Of a stretch of 64,000 nt of DNA, positions 4,812 through 60,486 are shown piece after piece (positions within the stretch are counted from its first letter, which is position 1; each line of letters starts with the position of its first letter). Origin of the DNA: Asterias amurensis (lineage: Eukaryota > Echinodermata > Asteroidea > Forcipulatida > Asteriidae); contig NC_092657.1 of NCBI RefSeq assembly GCF_032118995.1, positions 13,344,139 to 13,408,138 on the forward strand. Direction: 5' to 3'. The notes beneath the pieces were generated by a model. It was not told where the DNA came from and ran no database searches. It saw only the letters and a program-made list of their open reading frames with translations. A program made the position numbers and the translations under genes.

Positions 4812-4848
4812 TATATAAACGTTGTGTGTATATTTAATTGCTCAGTGC
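4812..4848 (+). promoter_or_regulatory. TATA box plus Inr of the FReD-discoidin gene
   Basis: TATATAA lies at 4812-4818 and an initiator-like TCAGT at 4842-4846. The spacing from TATA to the Inr A is about 32 bases, the normal metazoan distance. Translation would start 164 bases downstream at 5008. Prediction from sequence only. Confidence 0.5.
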
Positions 4849-5007: not shown

Positions 5008-5038
5008 ATGGGTCCTTTGCTGTTCCTGGTTCTTGGTG
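5008..5038 (+). CDS. Exon 1: start codon and signal peptide
   Basis: The ATG at 5008 is followed by the hydrophobic run MGPLLFLVLG, then a donor G|GTAAGT at 5039. It ends in phase 1 and joins exon 2 in frame to extend the signal peptide (VYLLSAS). Confidence 0.75.
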
Positions 5039-8000
5039 GTAAGTGCACAGTTTTTCTCCTCTAGGTAAAAAAAAAACGAGTATTGCAGACTCTCATCAAA
5101 AATTCAGTTGAATTTTTTCCTCGATATTTTGATTTTAAGTAATCTAGCAAACTACTTAAGCCCGAATATTTCTTTGAAAAGTGCAATTGTTTCCCATGGT
5201 GCCATAATACGTTGGGCGCGCGTGTGAAGTAACTGTGCGGTAGTTCTTGATAAAATGTGAGGCAACGGACCTGCTTCCGTCATGAGTAATCTTGATCATT
5301 AAATTATGTACTCTGTTTTTATTTTGTATTTGCAGAGGTGCCCTTACATCCTTGTAGAAATAATAGTTAGTAGGAAGCTGTTATTTTAAGTACGCTGAAT
5401 ACTTGTTAAACCTGTGCGAACCAAAATTCAACCTGCTGATAAAAAACTGCTTGTTGTCAATCAGGTCAAACTGCTATGCATCACTCGCAGTAGGGGCGTT
5501 GACAACATTTCTGAGTGATTGAATTAAATAACAGCTTCTTACACCTGTTTGATGTCATTGTTAGATTGTACAACTATATTGTATGATTGTTCTTTTATTT
5601 TGTGCGTTTTACCTCACCTCAAAATGAACCAACGTTAATATCACGCTAGTTGTAGGCCTACGGCTTGCTCAGAGGTGCCCGGAAACTCAATAGTGACCTT
5701 ATCTTCGCGAGACTCGCAAGTCTATTGAATGTGACCACTGGGTAAAACCATACTCATCTTAATTGCTTACTCCATCTTCGTCCGAATGTCTTGGATGTTG
5801 TTTTTGTTTCCATCAGTGGCAGTGGACACTTTTGGTAATTCTCAAAATAATAATTATCATCAAACCTTTCTTGATTACGAGAAATAGGGAGAGGTTGATA
5901 GTATAAAACATTGTGAGAGACAGCTCCCTCTGAAGTGACGTAGTTTTCGAGAAAGAAGTAATTTTCCACGAATTTGATTTCGAGACCTCAAGTTTAGAAT
6001 TTGAGGTCTCGAAATCAAGCATCTGAAAGCACACAACTGTGACCAGGGTGTTTTTTGTTCTGTCATTAATATCTCGCAACTTCGACAACCGACTGAGCTC
6101 AAATTTTCACGGGTTTGTTGTTATATGCATATGTTGAGATACACCAAGTGAGAAGACAGGTCTTTGACAATTACCAATAGTGACCACTGTCTTTAAAGTA
6201 AATTTATAGAATCGTGGTTTTAAATGCCAACAAGTACCACGACTTGACATTGCGTACTACACGTATTGTCGATTTGATTAATGATTTCATTGAATAACAG
6301 ATTAGTTCAAATTGCTGGGTAATAATGTGTGCAGAATACAATAAGCGCCTCGCGTTAAAAGATACGGTGAATTTACATGGTGAATAGAAGTGAATGATTA
6401 GTAATTTCCCCTTCATAGTTGACTCGTTGATGGTGGTTGAAATATTTAGTTTTACTGTTTCGTTTCTTCATCATCATGATATTGTCAAAAACCGATGACT
6501 TGTCAATGAATCAGTTTGATCATTTTGATGCTCACTAAAAGCGTTTTACATTTTCATGTTGGTGGTTGGTACATTTCCGATGGTAAATTATTTCTGAAAC
6601 ATTCGTATATGTCTTTTCAGGAGTTGTTCCTTTTGTTTCATGTGTTGTTCGTATATTTTCCAGCTGGTTGTTTATTTCGCTATGGTGTTGCATGTTGCAC
6701 GCTGTTTGTTACTCGCTAAAGGGGTGTACGCGTTAAAAAAGGTTACCTCGTAAAAAAAAAACCTGTTTGTATTCATATTTACAAGGAGAAAAATGTACGC
6801 AGTAATATTTTCTTTTCATGGCAAATTTCGGTTTTGTAGTTACCTCTGTAGGATGTTGCATCTAAATCCACTTACATATAAAATGTTGATCACTCTTTTT
6901 CTCTTGACTTAAGTTCGTCTGGTATTTATTTTGTTTGCAATACTCGTGTAACTGTTTTTCTTTGTATGTATGTAATAATTATAATTTGTCCCTTGCAATT
7001 TTGGTCTGTTTTGTCTGATGGTTTTACATCACGTAAAAAGCGAATTTGCGAGTCAAAGGTTAGGGTATATGCTCGTTTAGCCACTGTAACTGACAAGTTT
7101 AGGTGACAATGTCGCGCAATGATGTAAGTAGATACGTGCACAGTTTATAATCAGGAAATAAAAGGGTAGCGACGACTTTTTAAACGGACGTTTAAGAACG
7201 AATCGGTACTCTTTTATTCCCATTCATAAGATGCCCTTTTGTTAAAAACGTAAAAAAGTACCATTATAGACACTTTGATAAATCCGAGGTTTGAAATATG
7301 TTTTTCAAAAACTTTGTGAAAAATCTGTTTGATGCGCGTGGGTTGTGTGTACGCGCGCGCGCTTATAAATATATCACGCGCTGTTAGTAATAGCTATGAA
7401 TTGCGTTCCGCGTGATGATATTGGCGTACATGAGCTTGCGCGCCCGACACGCGGAAGCCAGCCGGTTATAAACAGCTCCAGCTGGTCATTATCAACCGTT
7501 TAAACACCCCCACGTGACGCGCTCTCCACCAAAAGGAGTAGCAGAATTGTCTGGGGTATTTATGAATAATGTTTCCCTATGAAATGGCAAGAAGATCAAT
7601 GCAACATATCCATGTGTTGATACAACCTTTCAATGTTCAAATGTCAGGCAAATCAATCGATATCGAACGATCACCCCAAATCGATCCTAAAATAAACACG
7701 ACTGACATCATCGAAGTGTATCCGATGTTGACTGATAAACGTACCGCTATTATACTAATAGGTGTCTTTATATCAAAATAATACCTTATACAAGGAGAGC
7801 AATGGTATTTCACACTGTAAGCTTACATCGGATCCAAACACTGTTGCTATATGATACATCATCGGTAGAAAAAGCAACTAGCAACTGACACTGTGTTGTC
7901 ACCTTGAACTTTATGTAGACCTTCGCTTAAGCACACTCTTCCTGCTTGTGTGGTAAAGAAAGCATGTATTATAAGAAACAACAGTAAACGGTGAACCTGA

Positions 8001-10286
8001 GGGTATACAGCAGTGTGTAAAGCTCTTTTCACATTGTATCTCTTTTTGTATCAGTTCATATGGGCTCCACCCCTGAAAGTGTAAAAAATGTTGTATTGAT
8101 CACTTTGTGTCATGCTTTTGTCACAATCTGATTATTATTATTTTCACCAATCGCGTGACTATCAATACAATTGAATGTTGAACCAAGAACATGAATTGAT
8201 TTTTGGTTTGTAAACTTGGATGTGATTAATGTTTAAAATGTATGCTTATGAAAGTCAAAAACATATTAAGACGAAGGCCGCAAACGTTATGGTCAGATAG
8301 TGAAGATGTTAGAGCACCTACAGTTAATCTTGAAGTAAAACTCTTATCACAATATACCTCAATATACTGTTTTTCTTTGCTTGATTAATTCTCAAATACG
8401 GAAACAGTCTGCATAAAGCAAGACTTTGTTTAACATCACTGCGTATAAGTAGAATACATTCGTACAAACAACACTAACATAAACCAAATCCAACTGCGTG
8501 GTATTATCTGTTTCTGTTGTTAGTTTATTTGCTGAGTGCCAGTGACGTAGCTGCTACTAAAGTTTGCTACTTAACCCAAGAACCTGACCCAGATGAAGGA
8601 AACCGACTACGATGGATCCAACCATTTGAGGATATGTGTTCCTGTACCTCAATCCGACCAGGAGGGCTGTTTAAAGTAGCTCCACAAATAAAGACTAAAC
8701 CCAGCTACACTTTTGAACCAATCTTCACTGATGACCAAGAAGAGATACATGATCGTTATGATTGCCATATGAAGGGTAAGAAGATTTGGAGATTAGGACA
8801 GAAGACTCGGGTGGGATTAGAATCAAACACTTTTGCATGGCTAGAGTGAAGTACTACCACTATGGTATCGAGCTAGCCCCTGTCGGGGATAACTAACAAA
8901 AATTATGCACAATAGTTGTTCGGTACTTTTCCGAGTTTCCAACACAAATTGCATTTGCATTGCTACAGAAGAAGTATCACTAATATAATGCCAAGCTAGC
9001 TCGATTGCTTGAGGCACGTAACGACTTTTTAGCAGTCAGCACCGCATCGAATCAACAAATGCTATGTTTTCCATCGGGTCAAGACAATATTGTTACCCTA
9101 ACACCGATGTGAAGAACCACTTTTTGCAGGAAATCAGCTAACGCATTGAGCTTAATACTTAATAGAGGAAACGGCTGCGTATATACATTTTTTGTTCATA
9201 CTCTGTTTCCAGGGGAAACATGTTTTCTAAATAAATTTAGATGGGAGACAAAAGTGTAGCAACGCCGAACAACGTGATCTGAATTATCAATTTATAGACA
9301 ACAAATTATCGATAATATTAAAATAAATATTTTCGTTTTGATTATTCCTTCAGACTGTCAGGATTTGTTGGATGCTGGTCGTAAGGAGGATGGTATCTAC
9401 ACAATCCATCCCATCCAGAATGAGAATGGAATACAGGTGTTCTGTGATATGACGAAACATACAGGCTGGATTGTAAGTACATCACTAAAGTGGTATTTAT
9501 TTAAGGGATTAAAAGGGTAGCGACGAGTTCTTAAACGGCCGTTTAAAACCGGCTGGGTCATGGTCGTGTGATCGTACGGCCACGACCCTGCAAGGTTTTA
9601 AACGGCGGTTTAGGAACGAGTGGCTACCCTTTTATTCCTATTCATGAATGCCTTCTGGGTTAACATGCGTAATAAAGTAGGAACTTTGTAAATCTTAGCC
9701 GTTGTCCGATGTACTTGAGCTCTGAACGTGTGTTGCCTTTTCATAACCGTTCGTGCGCGTCGTAGTCCTGGTGCAAGACGTTTCCCGTTTTCCTTTCACA
9801 CGCAGAGCGGCCAACTCACCAACAGCGCCCGCATCGCCTGTAACAATAAACGTTTTGCACCAAGACTAGCGCGTAGTATCCGAAAAAACGGTTATAAACA
9901 GAGCTCCAGCTGGTCAGTATCAACCGTTTACACACCACCACGTGAAGCGCTCTCCACCAATATGGATAGCGAAACTGAGGTGAATATACATTTAGGATCA
10001 ATGACATCGCAGACACGTCAACTTCAAACAAACACTTTTTTTTAAGTCAGTTGCATCCCAACAAAGATGATGCACAAGGTTGTTGGTCCGAATCCCCCAC
10101 CTAACCGCTGATTTCACAATGACTACAACAAATATTGTCGTCTAGTTACTTAATCACATTTTGTTGATTTGTGTAATTCATAATCATAGACGTTAAACCA
10201 ATGTTTGTATGAGAGGGATTGGCTGTTGTCAGCTTGGTGTTTATATCCCTTTGTGGGAGTTTGCCGAGTTCACTGAAGGGGAAGAT

Positions 10287-10317
<31 letters not shown>

Positions 10318-13300
10318 ACGGACGGACGGACGGACGGACGGACGGACGGACGGACGGACGGACGGACGGACAGACAGACAGACAGACAGACAGAAAAAAA
10401 ACATACAAACAGACAAACAGACAGACAGACAAACATACAAACAGAAAAACAGACAAACAATCGAGAAATCGAGCGAGCGAGCGAGCAAGCAAGCAAGCGA
10501 GCAAGCAAGCAAGCAAGCGAGCGAGCGAGCAACGAGCATGCACGCGAGCGAGCGAGCAAGCAAACAAACAAACAAACAAATAAATTACTCTCCACTTAAC
10601 ATTCCTTCGAACAAACACACTTTGTTAAGCCCTTTGGACATTCTGCCAAATTTCTTTTGAGTGATTTTCCACTGAACCTCAGACTAGTAGACGTCCTCTC
10701 TAGCCTTAAAACCAACCACAAAACTCACTTGTTTAGATTTATATAGCTTTTGTACTGTCTTTTTGACAGATATGGTGGTTTAAAATGTGTCTTTAGTCCA
10801 AATATTTAATGCATTTTGTCATTTTGCCCATCACACCTTTTGAAGACGAACCTGGTGCACTGTTTAACTCACAGTTTGCAACGTTTTCCATTTTTGTTTT
10901 CATGAAAAATACTTTAGACTAACAGCCAATGCAATAACTGTTTGTTAAATGTATTAAAATTGAGTCATTACTCCACGAAATTGAGAAGTTTGCAACGAAC
11001 ACACTAATTATTGCAAATATTTTCCAAAGTTTTCAAAACCTCATTGTTTTCCTTAAAATTTGAGCGTGATTTGCATAGATGAATATTTATAACAACAGTG
11101 ACGTAATTATACATGTACGAATTTAGTTTTAGAGGGGGTATTATTCATACCGGTTACATACGTTTAAAAATAAATAGAGATAAATCTGACGGCCAAGTCA
11201 AAATATTATCATATAAATAATTGCTTTGAAGGTGTTCCAGCGGCGCGTTAATAGGTCCGTCAAATTCGACCGCAGTTGGGCAGAATACAAAAAAGGCTTT
11301 GGGTCAATGGATGGTGAGTTCTGGCTTGGCAATGAGATTCTTCATAATCTGACTGGAGGGAACTGGACAATCCGTTTGGACCTAACCAATGAAGAAAATA
11401 AAACGGGTCATTTGCTGAAGAAACAGTTCCGCGTCGGACCTGACGATTACACCCTGTTTCTGGAGCGCTCCGAGATACCACCAACTGGTATGTCTACTTT
11501 TAGTTTGTTCTCGCCATTACCAGGGCTCCACTGATTATATTGATAATATATCAAGGTTGTTTTAAAGGCTCCATTTATTGTAATTTTTTGAAAGAACAAT
11601 TTGTAAAATATTTGTTTGTAAAGCACAAACTACGAATTATCAAAAGCTTGGTGACCTTTTAAACTATAATGTTCACAAATTAGTTTTTTTGTTGATGAAG
11701 TATTTCTAAACTCAATTGATGAACCAAAACAAAATTTGTTTATTTAACTCACGAAACAGAGCCCAGTTTGAGCCTATCGTGTTATAGAGAAGCCTTTTAT
11801 AAAGACAACCCAGAACTTACCAGAACTGGAGAACAACGCATCAAATTAAAATCTTCAATTAATCAAACGTTTGTATTTACAGTACGCTGGGTATGTAGAC
11901 AACGCCTTCTTAGGCAAGCCCATATCATTCCAGACGAATCACCACGGCTTCAGATTGACCTGCTGTTAGTAACTCTAGTTGAGGGAGTCATAGCACAAGG
12001 GACAAATGAACCGTCATTTCAAGTAGAATACAGCCTTGATAACGTTACTTGGGTCTATGTTAGCCACCAGGGAGAAGAAGAACCTCAGGTAAATGGTTTT
12101 GTCATTGCACTAACAAAATTGGTTTTGTAAAGGGGCACACCGGCTGAATTGGGCTATTTGGGCCACAACATAGACTAAGATATTGACTTCAAAGGTCTGC
12201 CAGGAATGTAGCCTTGCTCAAGGCAGTCGCATTATTCGCTCCGTGCATGGTGTGTGCGACCGAATGACCCACCCGTATACACACTGTCACATCGCACGAA
12301 TACTGTTAACACAAGTCATCGCACTCGTACACCATGCGGAGGCCGTCAGGCCGACAGCCTTGTCGGGTCTGTATCTTCCCGTTTTAATGTGTTGTATTGA
12401 ACAAATTCCAATAGTGGACGAAATTGGGGGGGGGGGGCTCTAGGATATGCTAGTATGCAGCTCATGAATATGTATATCGTTCGTCAGACCTATCAGACAA
12501 CACAGGATGTGAGGCAAATGAATTATTTATTTTGACGTCCAATCACGCACTTCCCTTATCACGACCTTTGGACCCTATCAGGCGTCCGTGGTGGTGGTGT
12601 GTGAGGTAAACGTGTCTCGTCTTTTGCGGGCATTATGGTAATGAGCTGACCGTGGGAACTCTTCGCTTATTATAGTAATGAGGTCAGTGGCTTCAACACA
12701 GATCCTACAAGGCTGTCGGCCTGATGGCCTCCGCATGGGATGCGGATAGTGTACGGGGGCATCGTGTCGTGTGAATACGGGTGGGTTTTACGCACAGTTG
12801 AATACGGGTGGGTTTTTACACAGCGGCGGTCTTTTTTTCGGAGTGAATAATTCGACTGCCTTGAGCAAGGCTACCAGGAATGGAGAAGAGCACTCACTAT
12901 AAAAATATGTTTTATGATCCTACACAACTAAATTGCGTATACGGTGAGCCGGTGTGCCTCTTTAAATTGACGAGTTTTGTTTATCGTGGACTTGTTACTC
13001 AACTTTAGCTTTAAACAAGGACAATTGATAATCCCAGAAACTCGCACGCACAAGGAACATTGCAGCATTATGAACAATAGATTTAGTTTTTCTTTGTGAC
13101 TAATATAAAAGCAAAGGTGTCAAAAAAAGAGCATTTTACCTTAATCAAGTTGTTCAATATATCCTGTGCTACAGATATTCCGTGGTAACACGGAGCAACC
13201 CGCACCGGTAACCATCTTGTTTCGGCAGCCGATCCGAGCACGCTTCATCCGTGTCACTCAAACAGACGTCGGATATCCTGCTGTACGCATTGAACTCATT

Positions 13301-13948
13301 GGATGCAGAAGTAAGTTCCTTGAAAGTAATAACCCAACTGAATTGTAATTGCAACTGCTGGTGTTGTTTTACTTGTTGGTTTGGCTTTAGTATTAATATA
13401 AATAAATAAAAACGATCTGAAACGTGTGTGAAACAGTGTTTTTGAAACAGTGTTTTGAAAGTGTTTTGAAACAGTATAGCCTGCTAATTTACACCTTTGA
13501 TATAACTTATATTCTAGAACACGCGTGCAGTAACGTTTCTTAAAAAAAAAAAAAAAAAAAAAAAGGTACCAGACATTAAACATTGCTTACTTAATTTTTG
13601 AAAAAGTACCTGAATCCTTTAAAAGAGCATCAAATGTTATTTGTATTTTATTTTGTTTTTCCAGATGATATTCTTGAGACTGCCAACAATCAAGCCTTCA
13701 GCATTCACCACCATACAGATAATAACCGAGACGAAACAAACTGCCCAGGTCTAAATAGTGAAGGAGGATGGTGGTTTAATAGATGCTCTGGTATACCTGG
13801 TGTAGATAATAACCTTAATGCTGAATATATCCAACCTGGTGATACTAAGGGTCCATACAAACGAGTTATTAGAGCTACTGAATGGAATGGGTGTCGTATT
13901 GTAAAAACTGAAATCAAAATACGCCGCCAATCTCCACCTCGTGGCTAA
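5008..13948 (+). CDS. Secreted fibrinogen-related protein with a discoidin domain nested inside the fibrinogen globe
   Basis: Seven coding exons are inferred: 5008-5038, 8524-8775, 9354-9472, 11232-11487, 11760-12088, 13175-13310, 13665-13948. All have GT/AG borders and all phases agree (1,1,0,1,0,1). The total is 1407 bases, 468 residues. Residues 1 to about 21 are a signal peptide. Residues 22-94 are a Cys-containing region I do not recognise. Residues 96-219 are the FReD N-half (CQDLLDAG, FCDM, GWIVFQRR, GEFWLGNEILHNLT). Residues 220-374 are an F5/8 type C domain (LQIDLL, GVIAQG, VEYSLDNVTW, ARFIRV, IELIGC). Residues 375-468 are the FReD C-half (TDNNRDETNC, GGWWFNRC, NLNAEY). FReD proteins are typically extracellular sugar- or acetyl-group-binding lectins, and discoidin domains bind glycans or lipids. 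A role in recognition or defence is inference. Alternative: exons 5-6 may be optional, giving 313 residues. Confidence 0.8.
5817..6196. mobile_element. MITE-1 copy
   Basis: It begins 'ggcagtggacacttttgg', slightly degraded with no TTAA on the left, and ends 'accaatagtgaccactgtctttaa'. It has the central stem 'tttcgagacctcaag' against 'ttgaggtctcgaaa'. It lies in intron 1 of the FReD-discoidin gene. Confidence 0.9.
7153..7570. mobile_element. GC-rich dispersed repeat (family C)
   Basis: It begins 'ataaaagggtagcgacga' and ends near 'ggggtatttatgaata'. Inside are 'cggttataaacagctcc', 'cagctggtcattatcaacc' and 'cacgtgacgcgctctccacc'. These blocks recur at 9512-9995 and, reversed, at 30286-30560 and 32044-32485. 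It is much richer in CG than its surroundings, with no ORF of note. Superfamily not identified. Confidence 0.65.
8524..8775 (+). CDS. Exon 2: end of signal peptide and unrecognised Cys-containing region
   Basis: The acceptor is TTGTTAG before 8524 and the donor is AAGG|GTAAGA at 8776. Entry and exit are both phase 1. Cysteines occur in KVCYL, DMCSC and YDCHMK. I do not recognise a domain. The exit phase joins it to the first FReD cysteine of exon 3. Confidence 0.7.
9354..9472 (+). CDS. Exon 3: FReD start
   Basis: The acceptor is TTCCTTCAG and the donor is ATT|GTAAGT. It encodes CQDLLDAG, DGIYTIHP and FCDM, the canonical beginning of a fibrinogen-related domain including the first disulfide pair, and ends in phase 0 at GWI. 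Confidence 0.85.
9512..9995. mobile_element. GC-rich dispersed repeat (family C) with internal hairpin
   Basis: A hairpin at about 9519-9633 pairs 'aaaagggtagc' with 'gctaccctttt' and 'gggtcatggtcgtg' with 'ggccacgaccc'. A second block (9740-9970) shares 'ggtgcaagacgtttc', 'gagctccagctggtcag' and 'cgctctccaccaa' with the other copies. It lies in intron 3. The ORFs across it are shadows of the repeat. Confidence 0.65.
10289..10579. repeat. Compound tetranucleotide microsatellite
   Basis: Runs of (GACA)n, (GACG)n, again (GACA)n, interrupted (AACA/GACA)n, then (GAGC/AAGC)n and (AAAC)n. Long open frames exist on both strands only because a 4-base repeat without stop words is open in every frame. 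They are not genes. It lies in intron 3. Confidence 0.95.
11232..11487 (+). CDS. Exon 4: FReD N-half, main part
   Basis: It follows the acceptor TTTGAAG and encodes VFQRRVN, WAEYKKGFGS and GEFWLGNEILHNLT, then NWTIRLDL and DDYTLFLER, the conserved FReD core. The donor is ACTG|GTATGT, in phase 1. The FReD stops here, about 90 residues short of its end. Confidence 0.88.
11760..12088 (+). CDS. Exon 5: discoidin (F5/8C) domain, first part
   Basis: The acceptor is GAAACAG (entry phase 1) and the donor is CCTCAG|GTAAAT (phase 0). Motifs: SCYREA (probable first disulfide Cys), RLQIDLLLV, VEGVIAQG and FQVEYSLDNVTWVYV, the usual order for F5/8 type C. The N-terminal third is weakly conserved. Confidence 0.75.
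12128..12964. mobile_element. TTAA-type element (family G), interrupted by a Mutator-like element
   Basis: The left end 'taaaggggcacaccgg' and right end 'ccggtgtgcctcttta' are inverted repeats. The same ends occur at 47946, 49918, 50954 and 51383. The element is split by the insertion at 12209-12873, with 'ccaggaatg' on both sides. Non-coding; intron 5. Confidence 0.75.
12209..12873. mobile_element. Mutator-like MITE with 9-base target duplication
   Basis: The ends are 'tagccttgctcaaggcagtc' and its complement 'gactgccttgagcaaggcta'. It is flanked by a perfect 9-base repeat 'ccaggaatg', diagnostic of Mutator-type insertion. An inner inverted repeat pairs about 12330-12372 with about 12705-12740. 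A poly-G run is at 12426-12437. No transposase. A shorter relative is at 47127-47448. Confidence 0.85.
13175..13310 (+). CDS. Exon 6: discoidin domain, C-terminal part
   Basis: The acceptor is GTGCTACAG (phase 0) and the donor is GCAGAA|GTAAGT (phase 1). It encodes FRGNTEQPAPV, PIRARFIRVTQ and VRIELIGC, the standard closing strands of an F5/8C domain with its terminal Cys. Confidence 0.85.
13540..13564. repeat. Poly-A run
   Basis: About 24 consecutive A in intron 6, with no adjacent recognised retroelement. Confidence 0.9.
13665..13948 (+). CDS. Exon 7: FReD C-half and stop
   Basis: The acceptor is TTTTTCCAG, entry phase 1. It encodes DILETANNQAFSIHH, TDNNRDETNC (calcium-site region), GGWWFNRC, NLNAEYI and a final IKIRR, exactly the part missing from exon 4. 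Stop TAA at 13946. It accepts either exon 6 or exon 4 in frame. Confidence 0.88.
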
Positions 13949-14117: not shown

Positions 14118-14123
14118 AATAAA
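14118..14123 (+). terminator. Poly(A) signal candidate
   Basis: AATAAA about 170 bases after the stop of the FReD-discoidin gene, the first such hexamer downstream. Confidence 0.45.
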
Positions 14124-23434: not shown

Positions 23435-24362
23435 CGGAGCTTTTCGCGAATCTTTCAAAAAAACGCTGGATAAGGGTATAATTCGAAATGATTGTTTTTG
23501 AACACAATTAAAATCTAGTGAATAGTCATATGACTCGATTTCCTTATTGATTTATTTACCACATTTTGAATGAAGTTCGGCAAAGTTCACACCTGTAGAC
23601 GCGACTATAGTCTGCTTAGTCTTCCTTAAATAATTCGCCTATTGACCTGGTAGTTGGAGCGTACAAGTAGGGGGCGATACAGTGCCACTTTGCTTGTGCA
23701 TTATTAACCAATATTGCTTTGTTGCTTGAAGACTTAGCGCTGCAAGATACAGTGCCCAATTGGCTAAACTTAATTCAGTATTCCACTTCTGAGCGAGGAC
23801 AGTGTTGTATAAAGTATTGCGGAAACGATTAGATGCATACATACATGCATAAACACACAAATGTTTTATCAGCCGACACTTCATCAAGACCAGTGGTTTA
23901 TTATGAAACAGAGACACAAATAAACGATTATCTTGTGTTTTATCGCGTGCATGCATCACTGAACCTTTTGAGAGAGAAAAAAAATTTCCTCATTATTTGG
24001 ACCGAAACACGTAGCTTGTACACGGCAATTAGAATTTCCATTATTATTTTATCAACCAGCAACGAATATAAATTTGACGTTTCTATGGTAACCGTTTTGT
24101 TATCATACAAAACACCACAGGACTTGCGTGGTTGGAAACAATCCAAAAAGCCATCACTTTCTATTTCACGGTGTCACAGAGTGGATCAGATCAACTGAGC
24201 TCCTAATTAAATTTGAGTTTCGCAGACGACTTGCAGTAAGACAACTTTGATGTTGACTGTTAATTTATTTTGTTTAATAAAATAAACAATTGTGACTGAC
24301 AACATTACCAGCTTCTTCATTTTCGTTTGGTATCCGAAACCTTTACTACTTACAAGTTCATC
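23435..24362. other. Upstream region of the second FReD gene
   Basis: Only short overlapping ORFs on both strands. I cannot identify a convincing TATA box or 5' exon for the gene at 24363. Confidence 0.35.
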
Positions 24363-25309
24363 ATGGGAGCTATTGCCTTAGCTTTGTCTCTGTTACTTAT
24401 GGTACTTTATTGTCAGAGTGAGAATCCACAGAGATTTATCTCAACCCTGTATCAAGCTACCAACCGAGCCTTGGAGAATCATGTGTTTCAGTGGAAGACT
24501 GTATCTTCTCCTGTGATCTGTGGGCGAGACTGCTCTATGGATCCACAGTGCGTGTCGTTCAACTACCAACTATGTAGCCATGTTTGTGAATTCAACAATA
24601 TCACCAGAGCAAACAGCCCCGATGACTTTATCGAATCGCAAGGAAGTGTATACTACGATGAAAAGGTTGACACTCTCTTAGTTGGTATTCCGGACCTGAA
24701 GAGGTATAGCAGTTGTATTCAGTTACATCAAGCCGGTTACTGTGACAATGGCATATACACAATCTATCCTACAAGCCTAGCTGATGAATTACATGTCTAC
24801 TGTGATATGAAGACAGATGGAGGAGGCTGGATCGTGTTCCAGAGGAGACAAGATGGCTCGGTTGACTTTTACCGTAACTGGACTGAATACCAATCTGGGT
24901 TTGGTGATCTGCATAATGAGTTCTGGTTGGGGAATGATATCCTGCGTGACCTTACTGGGTCAGGTCAATGGCAGCTCAGAGTACATATGGAAGATTGGCT
25001 GTTACAGGCGACAAGTACACTCTCCAGGTTGGTTCATATGATGCTCAGAGTACAGCAGGTGACTCAATGTCATATCATAATGGCCGTCCATTCTCAGCGA
25101 AGGATCGGGACAATGATGCACTTAATAGAAATTGTGCCTTGGACTATAAAGGTGCCTGGTGGTTTAAATACTGCTTTAAGGCTCATCTGAACGGTATATA
25201 CTATCCACAGGAAGATGGGTCAGACGCACGAGGAATACAATGGTATGCGTGGAAAGGATATCATTACTCACTGAAAAAATGCAGCATGAAATTACGGCAA
25301 GTTCTGTAA
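24363..25309 (+). pseudogene. PAN/apple-like plus fibrinogen-related protein, frameshifted
   Basis: No intron is seen from the ATG at 24363 to the TAA at 25307. In order: signal peptide (MGAIALALSLLLMVLY); a PAN/apple-like module (VICGRDCSMDPQCVSFNY, CSHVCEFNN, GSVYYD); then a FReD starting about residue 117 with CIQLHQAGYCDNGIYTIYP, CDMKTDGGGW, FQRRQDGSVDF and NEFWLGNDILRDL. After VHMEDW (about 24999) a small deletion removes the usual segment of about 13 residues and shifts the frame. The rest continues in another frame (AVTGDKYTLQVGSYD, RDNDALNRNCA, GAWWFKYC, HLNGIYY). No 30-40-base intron could explain this. If real it makes a truncated or dead gene; otherwise it is a null allele or assembly error. 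An intact version would be a secreted lectin-like protein. Confidence 0.82.
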
Positions 25310-35422: not shown

Positions 35423-35948
35423 AACCATCATCGCATAAGATACAAGCATATATATCCCCAGCATCATCACAGCACACATCATTAGGCTTTACAGGTTTGC
35501 CGTCAAGGGAGGTGCTGATATTGAACACCTCGTTTTACCATGAAATCCAGACAAACTAGTTTCGACTCGAGGAGGTTTGTAAAGATCAGTTGCTCCTTGC
35601 TGTTAACGGATATAAAGCTTGGATTGTCGGTATCGCCAATATCATCATGATGTATTGTGGAAATGGTTGATCCATCCTTGTTATGAAGATATATTACCTT
35701 TCTCCCACAGTCAGCCACTGCAATACGATCTTTCTTGTCAATAGCAATACTGGCGAGTATACTCTCTGACTGTCCCTCGACTTGATTTTGAAATGGTCTG
35801 AACTTACGAATAAATCGCAGTTCGCTATCATAAACCTTCACATCCTGTCCGTCAGTAACCAGAAGCAGGTCATCAGAGGTCACCGCAACACCGGCAGGGT
35901 CTTGTAGTTGTGCATCTTCTGTTCTACTTTGTACACCTTGAGATTTGT

Positions 35949-35951
35949 AAC

Positions 35952-36002
<51 letters not shown>

Positions 36003-37905
36003 GACTTGTAATGCGCACATATCCACCCTGCTGGGTGTTCAAGGCGCAGTAAACCAAAACAAAACAAAACAAAAACACAACACAAAGAAAAACAGACACA
36101 ACAAAATTAGTCATTGAAAACCTGTGACATAAGATAAGTTTTGAGAAGAGACTTGAATTTTGCGGTACAAAGACAAGATCGAAGATTAAGTGGTAGAGAG
36201 TTCCAGATGCGTGGCGCGGCTACAGAAAAAGACCTGTCACCCCATGAGTGTCGAGACTTGGGTTCAATGAGGAGAAGCATGGAACTAGATCGAAGATTCC
36301 TTGATGGAGTGTAAACTTGAAGCAGTTCAGAAATATAGTGGGGAGCCTTGCCATTTAGAGCTTTGTGGACAATGAGCATCAGCTTGAAGATGATTCGTTG
36401 AGAGATAGGGAGCCAGTGTAGTTGTTTCAGAATGGGGGTGATAGAACAGGATTTTCTAGACAGTGTCACAATGCGGGCAGCAGTATTTTGGAGCCGTTGA
36501 AGTCGGGAAATCTGGTTGTTAGGAAGACTGTAGAGAAGAGCATTGCCGTTGTCAAGACGAGAAGTAACAAATGCGTGAATGACCTTTTCAGTGGCACTTT
36601 TGTCCAAGTACTTGCGAATCTTACCTATATTCCTGATGTGATATGATGATAAACGAACAATGTTGTTGATGTGTGGCTGAAGTGTCATCGATGAATCAAA
36701 AATAACCCCTAAGTTCCGAGCTTTCAGCGAGGGAGCTATCCGAGCATCACCGATGGAGATGTATGGCACTGAAACCTTAGTTAACTGTTGACGTGACCCA
36801 ATTAAAAGGAACTCTGTCTTATCATCATTTAACTTCAGGAAGTTTTGTTGTGTCCAACGTCGAATCTCTTGGATGCATTTCTCAAGTCTTGCAATAGATG
36901 CATTGGCGTTTTCTTGAGAAGATTTAAACGTGATGTATAGCTGAGTGTCGTCTGCGTACACATGGTAATTCAGATTAAATTTGAGGATGATGTCACGAAT
37001 CGGTAAAGTGTACAGCGTAAACCACTGCGGGCCGAGTACCGACCCCTGTGGCACAGAGTAGTTCAAAACAACAGGGTCGGATATTGCAGTGCCAATACAT
37101 ACATGCTGAGTTCTGTTGTGGAGATACGATTTGCACCATGCTAGGGCTGTGTCCTCTATGCCAAGGTGATTCTGGAGCCGAGAGAGAAGGATGTTATGAT
37201 CAACAGTGTCAAAAGCAGCACTCAAGTCTAGCAGGACTAGTGCTGTAAGGTTACCATTGTCCATAGAAGAGAGAATATCGTTGCTCACACGGACTAGTGC
37301 AGCCTCGGTCCCATGGAAAGGCTTGTATGCTGACTGGAACACGTCGGACAGGTTGAAAGTATGAATGTGATCAGAAATACGTGATGACACTATTCGTTCG
37401 ATGACTTTTCCAAGATATTTTAAGTTTGCAACCGGTCTGTAGTTTTTGAATATCTCCTTGTCCAGGTTTGGTTTCTTGATGAGCGGCCTGATGTAGGAAA
37501 CTTTGAGGCTATCGGGGAAACAACCGGAACTGAGAGATTCGTTTACAAGCTTAGTGATGTAGGGTACAAATATATCAATGTTTTGCTTTATCATGGATGT
37601 TGATACTGGATCCAGCTCACAGGATTTTGAAGGAGATTTCATAATAACCCTTTGAATCTCAGCAACAGTGGCAGGCTCAAACACAGATAGTCTACACTCT
37701 GGTTGAAGATGTGGCAATGTCTGCGGCACGTTGTAAGGGACTGATGAAAATGATGAGCGGATGTCTGAAATCTTGGTGACAAAGAATTTCTGGAACTCAT
37801 TTGCTAAGTCCTGGTCATTGTAGGTGGATGGAAGGACAGGGGTTTTGGGTTTGAGCAAAAACTTACCAAATTATCTTGAAGAGCTTCTTTTGATCTCCTG
37901 AGGAT
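35949..37905 (-). mobile_element. LINE 1, L2/CR1-like, 5'-truncated
   Basis: A 583-codon frame (36107-37858) contains a reverse transcriptase: YRPVANLKYLGKVIERI, LDLSAAFDTVDHNILL, VPQGSVLG and the catalytic YADDTQLY, ending FKSLLKTYLMSQVF. The endonuclease half is missing. Just upstream, QKKLFKII is in another frame (one extra T), so even the retained part is broken. The 3' tail is an (ATT)n microsatellite (35949-36002 on the plus strand). It is inserted in TRIM copy A; 'ttgta' occurs at both junctions and may be the target duplication. Confidence 0.9.
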
Positions 37906-39116: not shown

Positions 39117-41065
39117 TCACACGCGATGCAAGATCTTAACCGAGTGTGTATCAACCACGATGAGGTCACCGGTCGGAGTAAACGTTATGCCTAGAGGAAA
39201 GTACAAGGCACGGGCTACACAGCCGATGTGCTCACCTGATGCATCGTAATGATGTATCCCACCGCTTCCATCCGTACCGTCAGAAATAGACACATATATA
39301 TCCCCAGCATCATCACAACACACACCAGTAGGCTCTACAGGTTGGCCGTCAATGGAGGTGCTGATATTGAACACCTCGTTTCCCATGAAATCCACACAAA
39401 CTAGTTTCATCTCATCATTGTTTGTGAAGATCAGTCGGTCCTTGCTGTTAACAGATAAAAAGCTTAGACTGCCGATGACGCCAATACCATCATGATGTAT
39501 TGTGGAAATGCTGGATCCATCGTTGTTATGAAGAGATATTACCTTTCTTGTAGAGTCATGCACTGCAATCCGACCTTTCTTGTCAACAGCAATACCAAAG
39601 AGTCTACTCTCTGACTGCCCCCCGACTTCATTCTGTGATGGTCTGAACTGACGCATATATCGCAGTTCTCTATCATAAACCTTTACATCCTGTCCGTCAG
39701 TAACCAGAAGCAGGTCATCAGAGGTCACCGCAAGTAAGAAAGGGTTTTCTAGTTCTCCATCTTCTGTTCTACTTTGCACACCTTTATATCTGTAACTACC
39801 ATTCGATGTAAATTTGGATAATATCCGCCGTTTTACATCATTAACGACGATGTCACCGTTGCTTAAACAAGCAACGTCCAATGCACCTTTGAACTCCCCG
39901 TAACCTTCCCCTTCTTTACCAAACCCTGTCTTCACCTCCCACTTCTCTTCCTCTAGTATTTCACCGATATCCGCATCAGAGACGACATCATGACCTTTGA
40001 ACCCGATGAATGACTTGCTATGCTGCACTGTTTGAAACTTGAGCTCATTGTGGAATGTCAAGTTGTGCATAACCTTTGGCTTGAGGTCCAGCAGCTCAAA
40101 GTCATCAGCATGTTGTATCAAGTCGTTGACTGAAGCTACGATCTGCTCTGCACGGCTCATCTTATCGCTATTGCTGATTTGTATGCTGCCAAATTCCTCA
40201 CCTCTTTATTGACCGATTTGAGTTATTCTGTCTTGAAGGATGCGAGATGCTTTTCTGATTTTGTCAAGTTCCTTTTCCTCCTTAGCCACAATATCTCGAA
40301 GAGCCTGGTCGACCATGAGCTGTAATCTATGTTGTGAGTGTTTGATAGAGTCATCCACTTTTTGAAATTGCTTGCGACATTCATCAAACTTCATCAAAGC
40401 CTCTTCAACAGCTTGACGATACGATCGAATGGAATCACTGAGATCAGTTAGGTTATGGTCTGACGATCGGTGATCGAGCACCGCACATTTATGACACGCG
40501 AGTACATCACACGTTTCACAGTAAAAACACAGTTCCTGATCAGTGTGTTTCCGGCATTTTGGAGAGCAAGTTTTTTTCTGGTTTCTGGATCCCTCATTTG
40601 ACGACCCGGCTGCACTCACGACTCGATGATGCCTGTTCAATTTGTTTATGGCGTGGTATTCCAAACAAGTCTTGCAAAAATTAGCTTCACGTCAACACAC
40701 AGTGAGACGGCATCAAGACCTTCGTCGCATCCTTCGCAAATCAATACAAGAGGGTTTGGCCTACTGTCTTCTCCGGGACCATCCGGATTGGTGACGTCAT
40801 CAATAAGCGAGCTCAAGAGAAAGCAGTTGAGAAGAGCCGATGGTCCCTTATCTGGGATTGAAGTTTTCTCTCTACACACTGGGCAAGTGATGAAACGCGT
40901 CTTTGTTTCCTGTTTGTCTACAAGTTCCTGAAGACATTTTAAGCAGAAGCTGTGCTGGCAGTCCAGGATTTTCGGATCGATGAACCGAGTCAAGCAGATT
41001 GGGCATTCGATGTGTACATGTCTAATCTTGCAAGTGGTCTCAGTGTGAAGTGCAGCTTCGGCCAT
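39117..41065 (-). pseudogene. TRIM-NHL copy B, one frameshift and one stop
   Basis: It covers the whole length of copy C. Residues 1 to about 123 (RING: CPICLTRF, CQHSFCLKCL, CPVC) are in one frame up to VDVKLIF. A one-base deletion at about 40693 ('cacgtcaac' against 'cacagtcaac') shifts the frame in the first B-box. The second frame runs through B-box 2 and the coiled coil to a TAA at 40206-40208 (RITQIGQ stop). The same frame then continues through six NHL blades to TGA at 39117. Lacks the Asp-Gly repeat. A 76-base 5'-UTR intron (41076-41151) is conserved with copy C. Probably a recent pseudogene. Two assembly errors would be needed to rescue it. Confidence 0.85.
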
Positions 41066-41075
41066 CTTGGTGAGA

Positions 41076-41151
41076 CTGAAAGTAAAACGAATGTCATTTT
41101 CAATAGTTCATACAGTCAGTGATTTTATACATTGGGTCGTAGCAGACTTAC
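41076..41151 (-). other. Putative 5'-UTR intron of TRIM copy B
   Basis: On the minus strand, GTAAGT (41146-41151) to TTTCAG (ending 41076), leaving ten 5'-UTR bases (TCTCACCAAG) before the ATG. It has the same length and borders as in copy C. Confidence 0.55.
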
Positions 41152-53607: not shown

Positions 53608-55320
53608 TAATAATAATAATAATAATAATATGAAACATTTATATAGCGCTCTACGGAGAACAGAGCGCTTTACATGAGACTATGACAACAAAACAAAAGA
53701 AAAACAAACAAACTAGGATGGGTGGGGAAAAAGAAATGTCTTGAGGAGGCTTTTGAATACAGGCAACGAGATCGCCTCTCTCAGACCCGCGGGGAGCTCA
53801 TTCCATAGGCGAGGGGCAGCTATGGAGAATGAGCTATCCCCAGCTTTCCGTCTAGTTCTAGGAACGGAAAGCCGGGTCTGATCAGCTGATGAGCGGAGTC
53901 GTTGCCTGTATTCATCAGCAGTATTGGAGTTTTGGGAATGAACAAGTTCAACCAGATATGATGGAGATTGGGTGTGGAGGATTTTGTATACATGAGTGAA
54001 AATTTTGAAGTTGATACGTTCTTTAACAGGGAGCCAATGCAGCGATGCAATCAGGGCGGCAGAAGGCTGGTCACGGCCACACGCAAATACTAGCCGAGCG
54101 GCCTTGTTTTGTAGACGCTGGAGTCGAGCGAGGTCATTTTCGCGGGCACCTACCAAAAGAGAGTTGGCATAGTCAAGACGGGACAAGACCAGACTTCTGA
54201 CGGCATGATGGCAAGCGCTTTGTGTAATAAACCGGCGAATACGCCATAGATTACGTATGTGGAAATTAACAGTTTTACATACAGAGCTAATGTGATGAGA
54301 CATATTCAGAGAACAATCAAGCGAGACTCCTAGGTTCTTAACAGATGTGGAAGCAGGAATTGTAAAGTCGGCCAATATTAGTTCAAGATTAGGGAGAGTG
54401 GATAAAACATGACTGTTCGCAAAAACAATAAACTCCGTCTTTCCCTGGTTCAGCTGAAGCATGTTTTGAGCCATCCATTTGTTGATGGCAAGCACACATG
54501 ATGATAATTTGCTGAGTACACGCTGACGATCACCTTCAGACTTAGGGTCAAACTCAGCATAAAGCTGAATATCATCAGCGTATTCATGAAATGAGATACC
54601 ATGTTGACGAATGATCTCGCCAATGGGATTGGTGTACAAAATGAAAGCCAACGGACCTACTATGGACCCCTGAGGTATGGAATAGGTAAAGATATGATGT
54701 CTTGAGAAATCGCCTTTTATCGAAACTTTGGTGGTACGGTTTTTGATATAAGTGCTGAACCAAGTATTGACCGTACTGCTTATTCCAAATTGAGTATGAA
54801 GTCTCTGGAGGAGAATGTCGTGGTCAACCGTGTCAAAGGCGGCAGACATGTCAAGCAACACCAAGAGAACAGCTTTACTTTTATCAAGGGAACGAAGAAT
54901 GTCATTTTTCACCCGAAGGAGGGCAGTCTCAGTGCTATGAAAGCGCTTGTAAGCAGACTGGAACTGTTCCCCTAGTGTGTAGCTGTCCACATGGTTAATT
55001 ACTTGACATGTTGCCACCTTCTCTATGACCTTGGACAAAAAGGGTACATTGGCTACAGGACGGTAACTCTTAAGATCATTACGGTCAAGAGAACTCTTCT
55101 TAAGTACAGGAGTAATTACAGAGTGTTTAAGATTGGACGGGAATATACCAGATGAGAGGGAAGCATTAACAATCTTTGTGATAACCGGGAGAAGAGTGGA
55201 TAGATTGTTTTTAACCAACCAGGATGGTAAGGTGTCCAATGAGCAAGATTTGTTTGAAAGACGCATGATAATTTGTTTAACGGCGTCACAATTACATGTT
55301 GTTACGGTAAGCCTTACTAT
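53608..55320 (-). mobile_element. LINE 2, L2/CR1-like, 5'-truncated
   Basis: The uninterrupted minus-strand frame is recognisable from about 55310 to 53713. It has the reverse transcriptase blocks YRPVANVPFLSKVIEKV, LDMSAAFDTVDHDILL, IPQGSIVGP and catalytic EYADDIQLY, then the C-terminal domain (LQRLQNKAARLV, LHWLPVKERI, RLWNELP, FKSLLKTFLF). No endonuclease half. The 3' UTR has a small hairpin ('gcgctctgttctccgtagagcgc') and ends in (ATT)n at 53608-53632. It differs strongly from LINE 1 in sequence, so a separate family. The open RT frame suggests a fairly recent insertion. Confidence 0.9.
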
Positions 55321-55439
55321 ACTAACTAATTCAAAGTGGATTTGACAATATTTTCCTTTGAATCCAGATTTCATTAACCAATAAAAACAATAAAAATAAG
55401 GGGATATGATCATGCTAGGGACAGCTTACAAATACATCA

Positions 55440-58411: not shown

Positions 58412-60400
58412 TCACACGCGATGCAATATCTTGACCGACTGCGAATCAGCCACGATGAGGTCACCGGTCGGAGTAAACGTCATGCCTAGAGGATTGTACA
58501 AGCCACGAGCTACACAGCCAATGTGCTTACCTGATGGATCGTAATGATGTATTTCACAAAAGCCATCACCATCACCATCACCATCACCATCACCATCACC
58601 ATCACCAACACCGCAGAAGATACACGCATATATATCCCCAGCATCATCACAGCACACACCAATAGGCTTTACCGGTTTGCCGTCAAGGGAGGTGCTGATA
58701 TTGAACACCTCGTTTCCCATGAAATCCAGACAAACTAGTTTCTTCTCAACGTGGTTTGTAAAGATCAGTCGTTCCTTGCTGTTAACAGATAGAAAGCTTG
58801 GACTGCCGATGACGCCAATAGCATCATGATGTATTGTGGAAATAGTGGATCCATCCTTGTTATGAAGATATATTACCTTTCTCACACAGTCAGCCACTGC
58901 AATACGATCTTTCTTACCAACAGCAATACCAAAGAGTATACTCTCTGACTGCCCCTCGACTTGATTCTGTGATGGTCTGAACTTACGAATAAATCGCAGT
59001 TCGCTATCATGAACCTTTACATCCTGTCCGTCAGTAACCAGAAGCAGGTCATCAGAGGTCACCGCAACACCGCCAGGGTCTTCTAGTTGTCCATCTTCTG
59101 TCGTACTTTGCACACCTTGAGATTTGCAACTACCGCTCGATGTAAATTTTGATAATATCCGCCGTTCCGAATCAGTAACGACGATGTCATCGTTGCTTAA
59201 ACAAGCAACGTCCACTGGATCTATGATTTCCCCCTCACCTTGCCCGTATTCACGAAACTCTGTCTTCACCTCCCACTTCTCTTCCTCTAGTATTTCACCG
59301 ATATCCGCATCAGTGACGACATCATGACCTTTGAACCCGATGAATGACTTGCTATGCTGCACTGTTTGAAACTTGAGCTCTTTGTGGAATGTCAAGTTGT
59401 GCATAACCTTTGGTTTGAGGTCCAGCAGCTCAAAGTCATTAGCATGTTGCATCAAGTCGTTGACTGAAGCTACGATCTGCTCTGCACGGCTCATCTTATC
59501 GCTATTGCTGATCTGTATGCTGCTGAATTGCCCACCTCTCTCTATGCTGATTTGAGTGACTCTTTCTTGAAGGAGGCGAGATGCTTTTCTGATTTTCTCG
59601 ACTTCCTCTTCCTCCTTAGCCACAATATCTCGAAGAGCCCGGTCGACCATGATCTGTAATCTATGCTGTGAGTGTTTGATAGAGTCGTCCACTTCTTGGA
59701 ATTGCTTGCGACATTCATCAAATTTCATCAAAGCCTCTTCAACAGCTTGACGATAAGATTGAATGGAATCTTTGATTTCAGTTAGTTTGTGGTTTTGCTC
59801 TCTGTGTTGAAATACCGCACATTTGAGACAAACAAGTAAATCACACGTGTCGCAATAAAAACACAGTTCCTGGTCAGTGTGTTTCCGGCATTTTGGAGAG
59901 CAAGTTTGTTTCTGGTCTTTGGATCCCTCATTTGACGACCCGGCTGCATTAACGACTCGATGATGCCTGTTCAATTTTATTTTGGCGTGGTATTCCAAAC
60001 AAATCTTGCAAAAATTCGCATCACAGTCAACACACCGTGAGACGGCATCAAGACCTTCGTCGCATCCTTCGCAAATCGAGACAAGAGGGTTAGGCCTACT
60101 GTCTTCTCTGGGACCATCCGGATTGATGACGTCATCAATAAGCGAGCTCAAGAGAAAGCAGTTGAGAAGAACCGATGGTCCCTTATCTGGGATTGAAGTT
60201 TTCTCTCTACACACTGGGCAAATGATGAAATCCGTCTTCGGATCCTGTTTGTCTACAAGTTCCTGAAGACATTTTAAGCAGAAGCTGTGCTGGCAGTCCA
60301 GGATTTTCGGATCGATGAACCGAGTCAAGCAGATGGGGCATTCGATGTGTACATGTCTAATCTTGCAAGTGGTCTCAGTGTGAAATGCAGCTTCGGCCAT
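58412..60400 (-). CDS. TRIM-NHL E3 ubiquitin ligase-like protein (copy C, intact)
   Basis: A single open coding exon of 662 residues. RING C3HC4: C21, C24, C36, H38, C41, C44, C61, C64. B-box 1 is about residues 110-147 (C110, C113, C123/126, C131, C134, H138). B-box 2 is about 171-204 (C171, H174, C183, C186, C191, C194, H199, H204). A coiled coil spans about 205-310. Six NHL blades run from about 395 to the end (DVACLSNDDIVVTDSERRI, GVAVTSDDLLLVTDG, GIAVGKKDRIAVADC, FLSVNSKERLIFTN, GVCCDDAGDIYACI, GMTFTPTGDLIVADS). RING proteins of this kind transfer ubiquitin. NHL propellers bind RNA or proteins. Substrate unknown; probably cytoplasmic. The ATG has a good context (ACCAAGATGG) ten bases after a splice acceptor. 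An Asp-Gly run of about 8 pairs interrupts blade 5. It is the only intact copy of three. Confidence 0.9.
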   Translation of the reverse strand: MAEAAFHTETTCKIRHVHIECPICLTRFIDPKILDCQHSFCLKCLQELVDKQDPKTDFIICPVCREKTSIPDKGPSVLLNCFLLSSLIDDVINPDGPREDSRPNPLVSICEGCDEGLDAVSRCVDCDANFCKICLEYHAKIKLNRHHRVVNAAGSSNEGSKDQKQTCSPKCRKHTDQELCFYCDTCDLLVCLKCAVFQHREQNHKLTEIKDSIQSYRQAVEEALMKFDECRKQFQEVDDSIKHSQHRLQIMVDRALRDIVAKEEEEVEKIRKASRLLQERVTQISIERGGQFSSIQISNSDKMSRAEQIVASVNDLMQHANDFELLDLKPKVMHNLTFHKELKFQTVQHSKSFIGFKGHDVVTDADIGEILEEEKWEVKTEFREYGQGEGEIIDPVDVACLSNDDIVVTDSERRILSKFTSSGSCKSQGVQSTTEDGQLEDPGGVAVTSDDLLLVTDGQDVKVHDSELRFIRKFRPSQNQVEGQSESILFGIAVGKKDRIAVADCVRKVIYLHNKDGSTISTIHHDAIGVIGSPSFLSVNSKERLIFTNHVEKKLVCLDFMGNEVFNISTSLDGKPVKPIGVCCDDAGDIYACIFCGVGDGDGDGDGDGDGDGFCEIHHYDPSGKHIGCVARGLYNPLGMTFTPTGDLIVADSQSVKILHRV
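58563..58608. repeat. (CACCAT)n hexanucleotide in TRIM copy C
   Basis: About 8 units, encoding Asp-Gly pairs on the minus strand between IYACIFCG and FCEIHHYD of NHL blade 5. Because the unit is six bases, length changes keep frame. Confidence 0.93.
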
Positions 60401-60410
60401 CTTGGTGAGA

Positions 60411-60486
60411 CTGAAAGTAAAACGAATGTCATTTTCAATAGTTCATACAGTCAGTGATTTTATACATTGGGTGGTAGCAGACTTAC
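60411..60486 (-). other. Putative 5'-UTR intron of TRIM copy C
   Basis: Minus strand GTAAGT (60481-60486) to TTTCAG (ending 60411), 76 bases, conserved in copy B. Confidence 0.55.

What the first reader, a model, noticed from the sequence alone, without database searches (positions are those of the whole stretch)
5008..13948. A discoidin domain nested inside a fibrinogen-related domain
Seen: collinear exons with correct splice sites encode FReD N-half (exons 3-4), a complete F5/8C module (exons 5-6), then the missing FReD C-half (exon 7). All phases agree over 1407 bases with no stop. Known: FReD and F5/8C domains occur side by side in animal lectins. I do not recall one inserted within the other. 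Inferred: the insertion lies in the loop just before the FReD calcium and ligand-pocket region, so it may move the binding pocket or add a second ligand.
Basis: partly seen in the sequence, partly recalled or inferred. Interest (0 to 1): 0.92.

Follow-up and report, generated by a model that had tools for sequence, protein, structure and literature searches.

The report
Sea-star fibrinogen domain with nested discoidin
A sea-star gene encodes a probably secreted protein in which a shortened discoidin-type domain sits inside a fibrinogen-type domain; database relatives carry one to four such inserts at the same place, pointing to an overlooked family that may swap recognition modules inside a fixed frame.

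The parts
5008..5038 (+). exon 1: start codon and first part of the signal-peptide-like start
   Evidence: in-frame join to exon 2; P0023 begins with nearly the same residues across this junction
8524..8775 (+). exon 2: rest of the signal-peptide-like start and a Cys-containing N-terminal module without a Pfam match
   Evidence: 92% identical to P0020 over 84 residues; no Pfam family (protein 4)
9354..9472 (+). exon 3: first part of FReD N-half
   Evidence: Fibrinogen_C; exons 3-4 94% identical to P0020
11232..11487 (+). exon 4: rest of FReD N-half, ends in phase 1 at the insertion site
   Evidence: weak acceptor score but homology supports it
   Evidence: no match better than E 1.7 among 176 proteins; relatives start at 11883
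11883..12088 (+). exon 5 (corrected): start of the shortened F5/8C, type 4
   Evidence: tblastn 77-90% with P0001-P0004 from 11882; exons 5-6 91% identical to P0019
13175..13310 (+). exon 6: C-terminal part of the F5/8C with the domain's last Cys
13665..13948 (+). exon 7: FReD C-half and stop codon
   Evidence: 82-93% identical to P0001, P0002 and P0004-P0006 by tblastn; up to 95% by blastp
4812..4817 (+). TATA-like motif, possible promoter
   Evidence: pattern match only
14118..14123 (+). AATAAA, possible polyadenylation signal 170 bases after the stop
   Evidence: pattern match only
24300..25306 (+). neighbouring PAN + FReD coding region whose FReD is not interrupted by F5/8C (comparison)
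   Evidence: Pfam and HMM matches in two overlapping frames

Best explanation
This is a genuine, apparently intact gene of a sea-star family of probably secreted FReD proteins in which F5/8C exon cassettes sit in a phase-1 intron inside the FReD. The two FReD halves fold together into one domain, and the F5/8C, whose first and last cysteines would bring its ends together, projects from a surface loop near the pocket. In longer family members nested full-length F5/8C domains would be recognition heads held by a conserved FReD frame. The window gene is the shortest form: it lacks types 1-3 and keeps only the shortened type 4, so it most likely works as a frame with a spacer (subunit or assembly partner, or low-affinity form), not as a two-ligand lectin. 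Shown: exon anatomy, family, same site, cassette types, missing spikes. Supported by modelling of a relative: FReD closure. Inferred: secretion, disulphide, recognition role, spacer role.
Against: Type 3 domains show no loop excess (0.33 against 0.37; 94 of 152 shifts) and type 4 no clear one (26 of 114); in type 2 the excess is mostly spike 3 (1.80) while spike 1 (0.48) is like the core (0.44). I set the loop windows after seeing the variable strings, so the test is not blind. The first, shallower model had pLDDT under 50 in much of the FReD C-half. The second reached pTM 0.55 only: C-half blocks range 44-81 apart from the last strand, the start of the type 4 domain (331-350) and the N-terminal part of the type 1 domain are low, and its alignment contained 103 intact FReDs. 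Foldseek's top 35 rows are F5/8C proteins; its listed FReD hits mostly align 124-130 columns at rmsd 1.2-2.2, one 145 at 7.6, and two longer ones at rmsd above 20. The relatives are database gene models whose transcript support I did not see. The Patiria protein falls outside the Asterias nested clade, with unnested FReDs between.
Confidence: 0.62

Rival explanations
1. Exons 5-6 are an optional cassette that is usually skipped, and the main product is an ordinary FReD.
For: Exons 5-6 (342 bases, phase 1 to 1) can be skipped in frame; the exon 4-7 join gives one full Fibrinogen_C match, positions 2-219 of 221, 129.1 bits, against 122.6 with the insert.
Against: All 16 proteins that the pattern found with this C-half motif, among the 176 fetched, carry F5/8C; no unnested model of this subfamily was seen there.
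Confidence: 0.15
2. The gene is a decaying short paralogue without function: binding loops gone, calcium motif altered, three cassettes missing.
For: Only the spike-poor type 4 domain remains; at least the first calcium Asp is replaced; the 5' half resembles P0020 most and the F5/8C P0019 most, as after unequal exchange.
Against: Start, junctions, frame and stop are intact; the shortened type 4 domain is shared by 15 A. amurensis paralogues and the motif change by the relatives of this clade shown, so neither is decay of this copy alone; best identity per segment is 91-95%.
Confidence: 0.18
3. Assembly collapse: the real gene has types 1-3 between exon 4 and exon 5, lost in the window's assembly.
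For: Closest relative P0020 has four nested domains; intron 4 is only 395 bases; tandem-like paralogues invite collapse.
Against: Two-domain members exist in two species (P0001, P0002, P0004, P0006), so fewer cassettes are ordinary here; the nested layout itself does not depend on this.
Confidence: 0.12
4. One reading: 468 residues with a complete F5/8C that adds a second ligand or moves the pocket.
For: The frame is open from 11723 to 12130 and an AG precedes 11760.
Against: The 41 extra residues match nothing; relatives use 11883.
Confidence: 0.04

Closest known systems
FReD lectins: ficolins, tachylectin-5A, FIBCD1, MFAP4
   Same: Same domain family; the exon 4-7 join is of canonical length; the GGWW, the two nearby Cys and the LN(A/G)EY motifs are kept.
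   Different: Split by an F5/8C; first calcium Asp replaced; Pfam matched no further domain in the product at a significant score.
F5/8 type C (discoidin) domains of factor V, factor VIII, neuropilin, lactadherin
   Same: Best PDB sequence matches are factor V-type chains and neuropilin-2; first and last Cys kept.
   Different: Lacks spikes 1 and 2 and part of spike 3; lies inside another domain instead of in tandem.
Asterias 'coagulation factor VIII-like'/'uncharacterized' proteins P0001-P0004, P0006, P0019-P0029
   Same: Same split FReD and same cassette types; P0020 is 83-95% identical segment by segment.
   Different: Two to four nested domains; the window has one.
Asterias P0031, P0032 and Patiria P0036 with one full-length nested F5/8C
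   Same: Same insertion site.
   Different: Complete F5/8C and usual FReD calcium motif.
Branchiostoma P0040 with F5/8C and FReD
   Same: Both domain kinds in one chain.
   Different: Side by side: two F5/8C, then a FReD in one stretch (profile 31-244).
Mollusc FREPs (recalled; also named in a passage of PMC13428168)
   Same: Germline-expanded FReD family.
   Different: Ig domains lie beside the FReD, not inside it (recalled).

Membership tests
FReD (Fibrinogen_C) | profile match over the whole domain | tested here: met
   two stretches around the insert, 122.6 bits; one stretch 2-219 of 221 when exons 4 and 7 are joined
FReD (Fibrinogen_C) | closed FReD fold from both halves | tested here: inconclusive
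   seen in the model of relative P0002; the window product itself was not folded
FReD calcium site | Asp pair as Asp393 and Asp395 of FIBCD1 (PMC3908420, passages) | tested here: not met
   the first Asp position is His; the second is Thr or Asp depending on a one-residue gap, so calcium binding by other ligands is not excluded
F5/8C domain | profile match above the curated cut-off | tested here: met
F5/8C domain | complete domain with binding spikes 1-3 | tested here: not met
   spikes 1 and 2 absent, spike 3 shortened
F5/8C domain | first and last Cys that join the domain ends | tested here: met
   both Cys present in the sequence; the bond itself is not testable here
Sea-star nested FReD/F5-8C family | insertion at the same FReD site | tested here: met
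   C-half begins at FReD profile position 161; range 157-164 in 19 relatives
Sea-star nested FReD/F5-8C family | expressed as one polypeptide | not testable with these tools
   no transcript or protein data held

The most novel reading that the evidence does not exclude
Sea stars use the FReD as a constant frame whose internal loop presents 1-4 exchangeable F5/8C heads; germline cassette gain, loss and exchange plus variation focused on the F5/8C spikes make a diversified recognition repertoire, and the window gene is its headless base form.
Probability: 0.35. Interest if true: 0.82.

Novelty: new variant of a known kind. Interest (0 to 1): 0.64.

Why it matters
None of the paper listings and passages that I saw describes an F5/8C inserted in a FReD, yet database models show a multi-gene family with it. 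If confirmed, it is a clear case of exon cassettes shuffled inside a folded domain, with partly loop-focused variation that would make a germline immune-type repertoire in sea stars directly testable.

Tried and rejected
(2) That the layout is a one-off: relatives in three species share it. (3) That F5/8C with FReD in one chain is always nested: Branchiostoma P0040 is side by side. (4) A single origin of the nested forms could not be shown: the FReD tree puts Patiria P0036 outside, with unnested FReDs of Asterias, Acanthaster and Patiria between (supports 0.75-0.93 on the intervening nodes), so either precise cassette loss or two insertions at one loop; undecided. (5) Remnants of cassettes 1-3 in introns 4 and 5: tblastn of P0001-P0008 against the window at E 0.01 shows none; F5/8C matches there fall on exons 5-6, except one of 27% identity (P0005, 11738-12088) that starts in the intron and runs through exon 5. 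(6) A window-wide look for further nested copies: the two profiles hit, among 684 ORF pieces of 40 residues or more, only this gene's exons and the PAN-FReD region.

Limits: the protein searches fetch relatives that share short words; one search listed the best 120 of 361 and only E <= 1e-20, so absence of nested forms outside sea stars holds for the 176 proteins fetched and no further. Branchiostoma P0125 also has a FReD interrupted by 48 residues at another place, not looked into. Ten paper searches were made. Papers: passages by term search only in PMC13428168, PMC13409769 (none of five terms found), PMC11257402, PMC9643838, PMC11090083 ('fibrinogen', 'discoidin' and 'lectin' not found in the main text), PMC3908420; all others as search listings with the start of the abstract. 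The statement that the layout is not described rests on those searches of open-licence papers alone.

Full report
What is there. The TAA stop is at 13946-13948. On the joined product Pfam finds Fibrinogen_C in two stretches (2.8e-35) with F5_F8_type_C between them (1.3e-10).

Correction of exon 5. A search of about 5.8 billion proteins returned 18 relatives; the top six are Asterias proteins named 'coagulation factor VIII-like' or 'uncharacterized'. tblastn of P0001-P0004 places the start of their last F5/8C at 11882, which fits an acceptor before 11883. Of the 15 A. amurensis members with the shortened last domain, 12 begin it VRWVC, P0025 VRLVC, P0028 VNWVC and P0005 VRC. The 41 residues read by the first stage from 11760 match nothing better than E = 1.7 among the 176 fetched proteins. 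With 11883 the product is 427 residues. A second search with alignment A2 (six relatives plus this product) and a third with A4 (P0032, P0036, P0031) gave 361 and 68 relatives, of which 120 and 68 were listed; 176 distinct proteins were held in the end.

A family, not a one-off. Profiles built here from FReDs and from the family's F5/8C domains were run on all 176 proteins. Twenty-five matched both. Nineteen have a FReD N-half, one to four F5/8C domains and a FReD C-half: 16 A. amurensis, 2 A. rubens (P0006, P0032) and 1 Patiria miniata (P0036). The other six are four partial models (P0005, P0033, P0126, P0127), a Branchiostoma protein with the domains side by side (P0040), and an Amphiura protein with a partial FReD stretch (P0034). 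In all 19 the C-half starts at FReD profile position 157-164, as in the window (161). One more protein, Branchiostoma P0125, has a FReD interrupted elsewhere. Fifteen A. amurensis family proteins (14 of the nested ones and the partial P0005) bear the contig length 22,560,732, so they very likely lie on one chromosome.

Cassettes. A tree of 66 F5/8C domains groups those of the multi-insert members by position into types 1, 2, 3 and 4 (no support values printed). Twelve of the 19 are 1-2-3-4; P0002 is 1-4; P0001, P0004 and P0006 are 3-4; P0031, P0032 and P0036 have one domain outside these types; the window is 4 alone. Type 4 is full length in P0006 and P0029 and shortened in the window and 15 A. 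amurensis members. Segment by segment the window is closest to P0020 in exons 1-4 (92% and 94%), to P0019 in exons 5-6 (91%, against 83% for P0020), and ties with four relatives in exon 7 at 95%. This mosaic suggests exchange among paralogues. Exons 5-6 are a phase 1-1 cassette of 342 bases, so gain, loss or skipping keeps the frame.

What the insert lacks. Aligned to the factor VIII C2 domain, the window's F5/8C has no residues at spike 1 or spike 2 and a shortened spike 3 (in the separate type 4 alignment two columns at the end of spike 2 are filled). In factor VIII, M2199-F2200, L2251-L2252 and W2313-H2315 are reported as needed for optimal binding, and R2320 as central (PMC9643838, passages); the numbering of my alignment reproduces the first two pairs. 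The Arg at the R2320 position is kept in the window, P0006, P0029 and P0028 and is Ser in the other 14 of the 15 shortened A. amurensis domains. The FReD calcium motif, usually F-S/T-T-x-D-x-D, reads F-S-I-H-H-H-T-D in the window: the first Asp is lost, and the second depends on the placing of a one-residue gap. P0031, P0032 and P0036 keep the Asp pair.

Where the family varies. Among the 15 family proteins of the large A. amurensis contig, mean pairwise identity is 0.905 for the FReD C-half (15), 0.826 for an 87-residue piece of the N-half (14), and 0.776, 0.777, 0.846 and 0.801 for F5/8C types 1 (13), 2 (12), 3 (14) and 4 (15). In types 1 and 2 entropy is higher in the spike loops than in the core (1.16 against 0.32, and 0.87 against 0.44; 2 of 146 and 2 of 149 circular shifts reach this); in type 2 the excess is mostly spike 3. 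Type 3 shows no excess (0.33 against 0.37, 94 of 152) and type 4 none that is clear (0.66 against 0.48, 26 of 114). The loop windows were chosen after the variable strings had been seen, so this is a lead and not a blind test.

How it most likely works. The FReD is a frame; its loop before the pocket segment presents F5/8C domains, whose paired end cysteines suit insertion into a loop. In longer relatives types 1 and 2 look like diversified recognition heads. The window gene has no such head: it is a base form with a spike-poor spacer and an altered calcium motif. I infer a structural or partner role, or a low-affinity form. A transcript skipping exons 5-6 would be a complete FReD and is not excluded.

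Origin. In a FReD tree the 18 Asterias nested sequences and the window form one clade (support 1.0), with unnested Asterias FReDs next to it; Patiria P0036 lies further out. One insertion followed by losses, or two insertions at one tolerant loop, remain open. The species of the window is not established; its segments are 91-95% identical to the best A. amurensis relatives.

Novelty. The layout stands in databases without a name. None of the listings or passages from ten full-text searches describes it, and the main text of the A. amurensis genome paper has no mention of fibrinogen, discoidin or lectin. I rate it a new variant of a known kind: known domains, a little-noticed way of combining them.

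Noticed in passing
   Followed up: partly
window 58415-60442 (-) and 39120-41107 (-): TRIM-like RING/B-box/NHL coding regions: one open over 676 residues, one broken into several frames; a further NHL piece at 35506-36219.
   Followed up: partly
window 36110-37870 (-) and 53716-55425 (-): Two reverse-transcriptase ORFs. Annotated relatives P0020 (Pfam RVT_1) and P0001 (its N-terminal part hits these ORFs) seem to have reverse-transcriptase pieces fused to their N-termini, probably annotation errors.
   Followed up: no
window 8524-8775 (exon 2): Cys-containing N-terminal module without a Pfam family, shared with unnested sea-star FReD proteins P0008, P0030, P0046 and P0057.
   Followed up: no
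type 4 F5/8C domains of the window and relatives: Arg at the factor VIII R2320 position is kept in the window, in P0028 and in full-length type 4 domains (P0006, P0029) but is Ser in 14 of 15 shortened A. amurensis ones.
   Followed up: partly
P0125 residues 75-340: Branchiostoma FReD interrupted by 48 residues at a different place.
   Followed up: no
window 10285-10400: GACA/GGAC tetranucleotide array inside intron 3, seen in the sequence.
   Followed up: no
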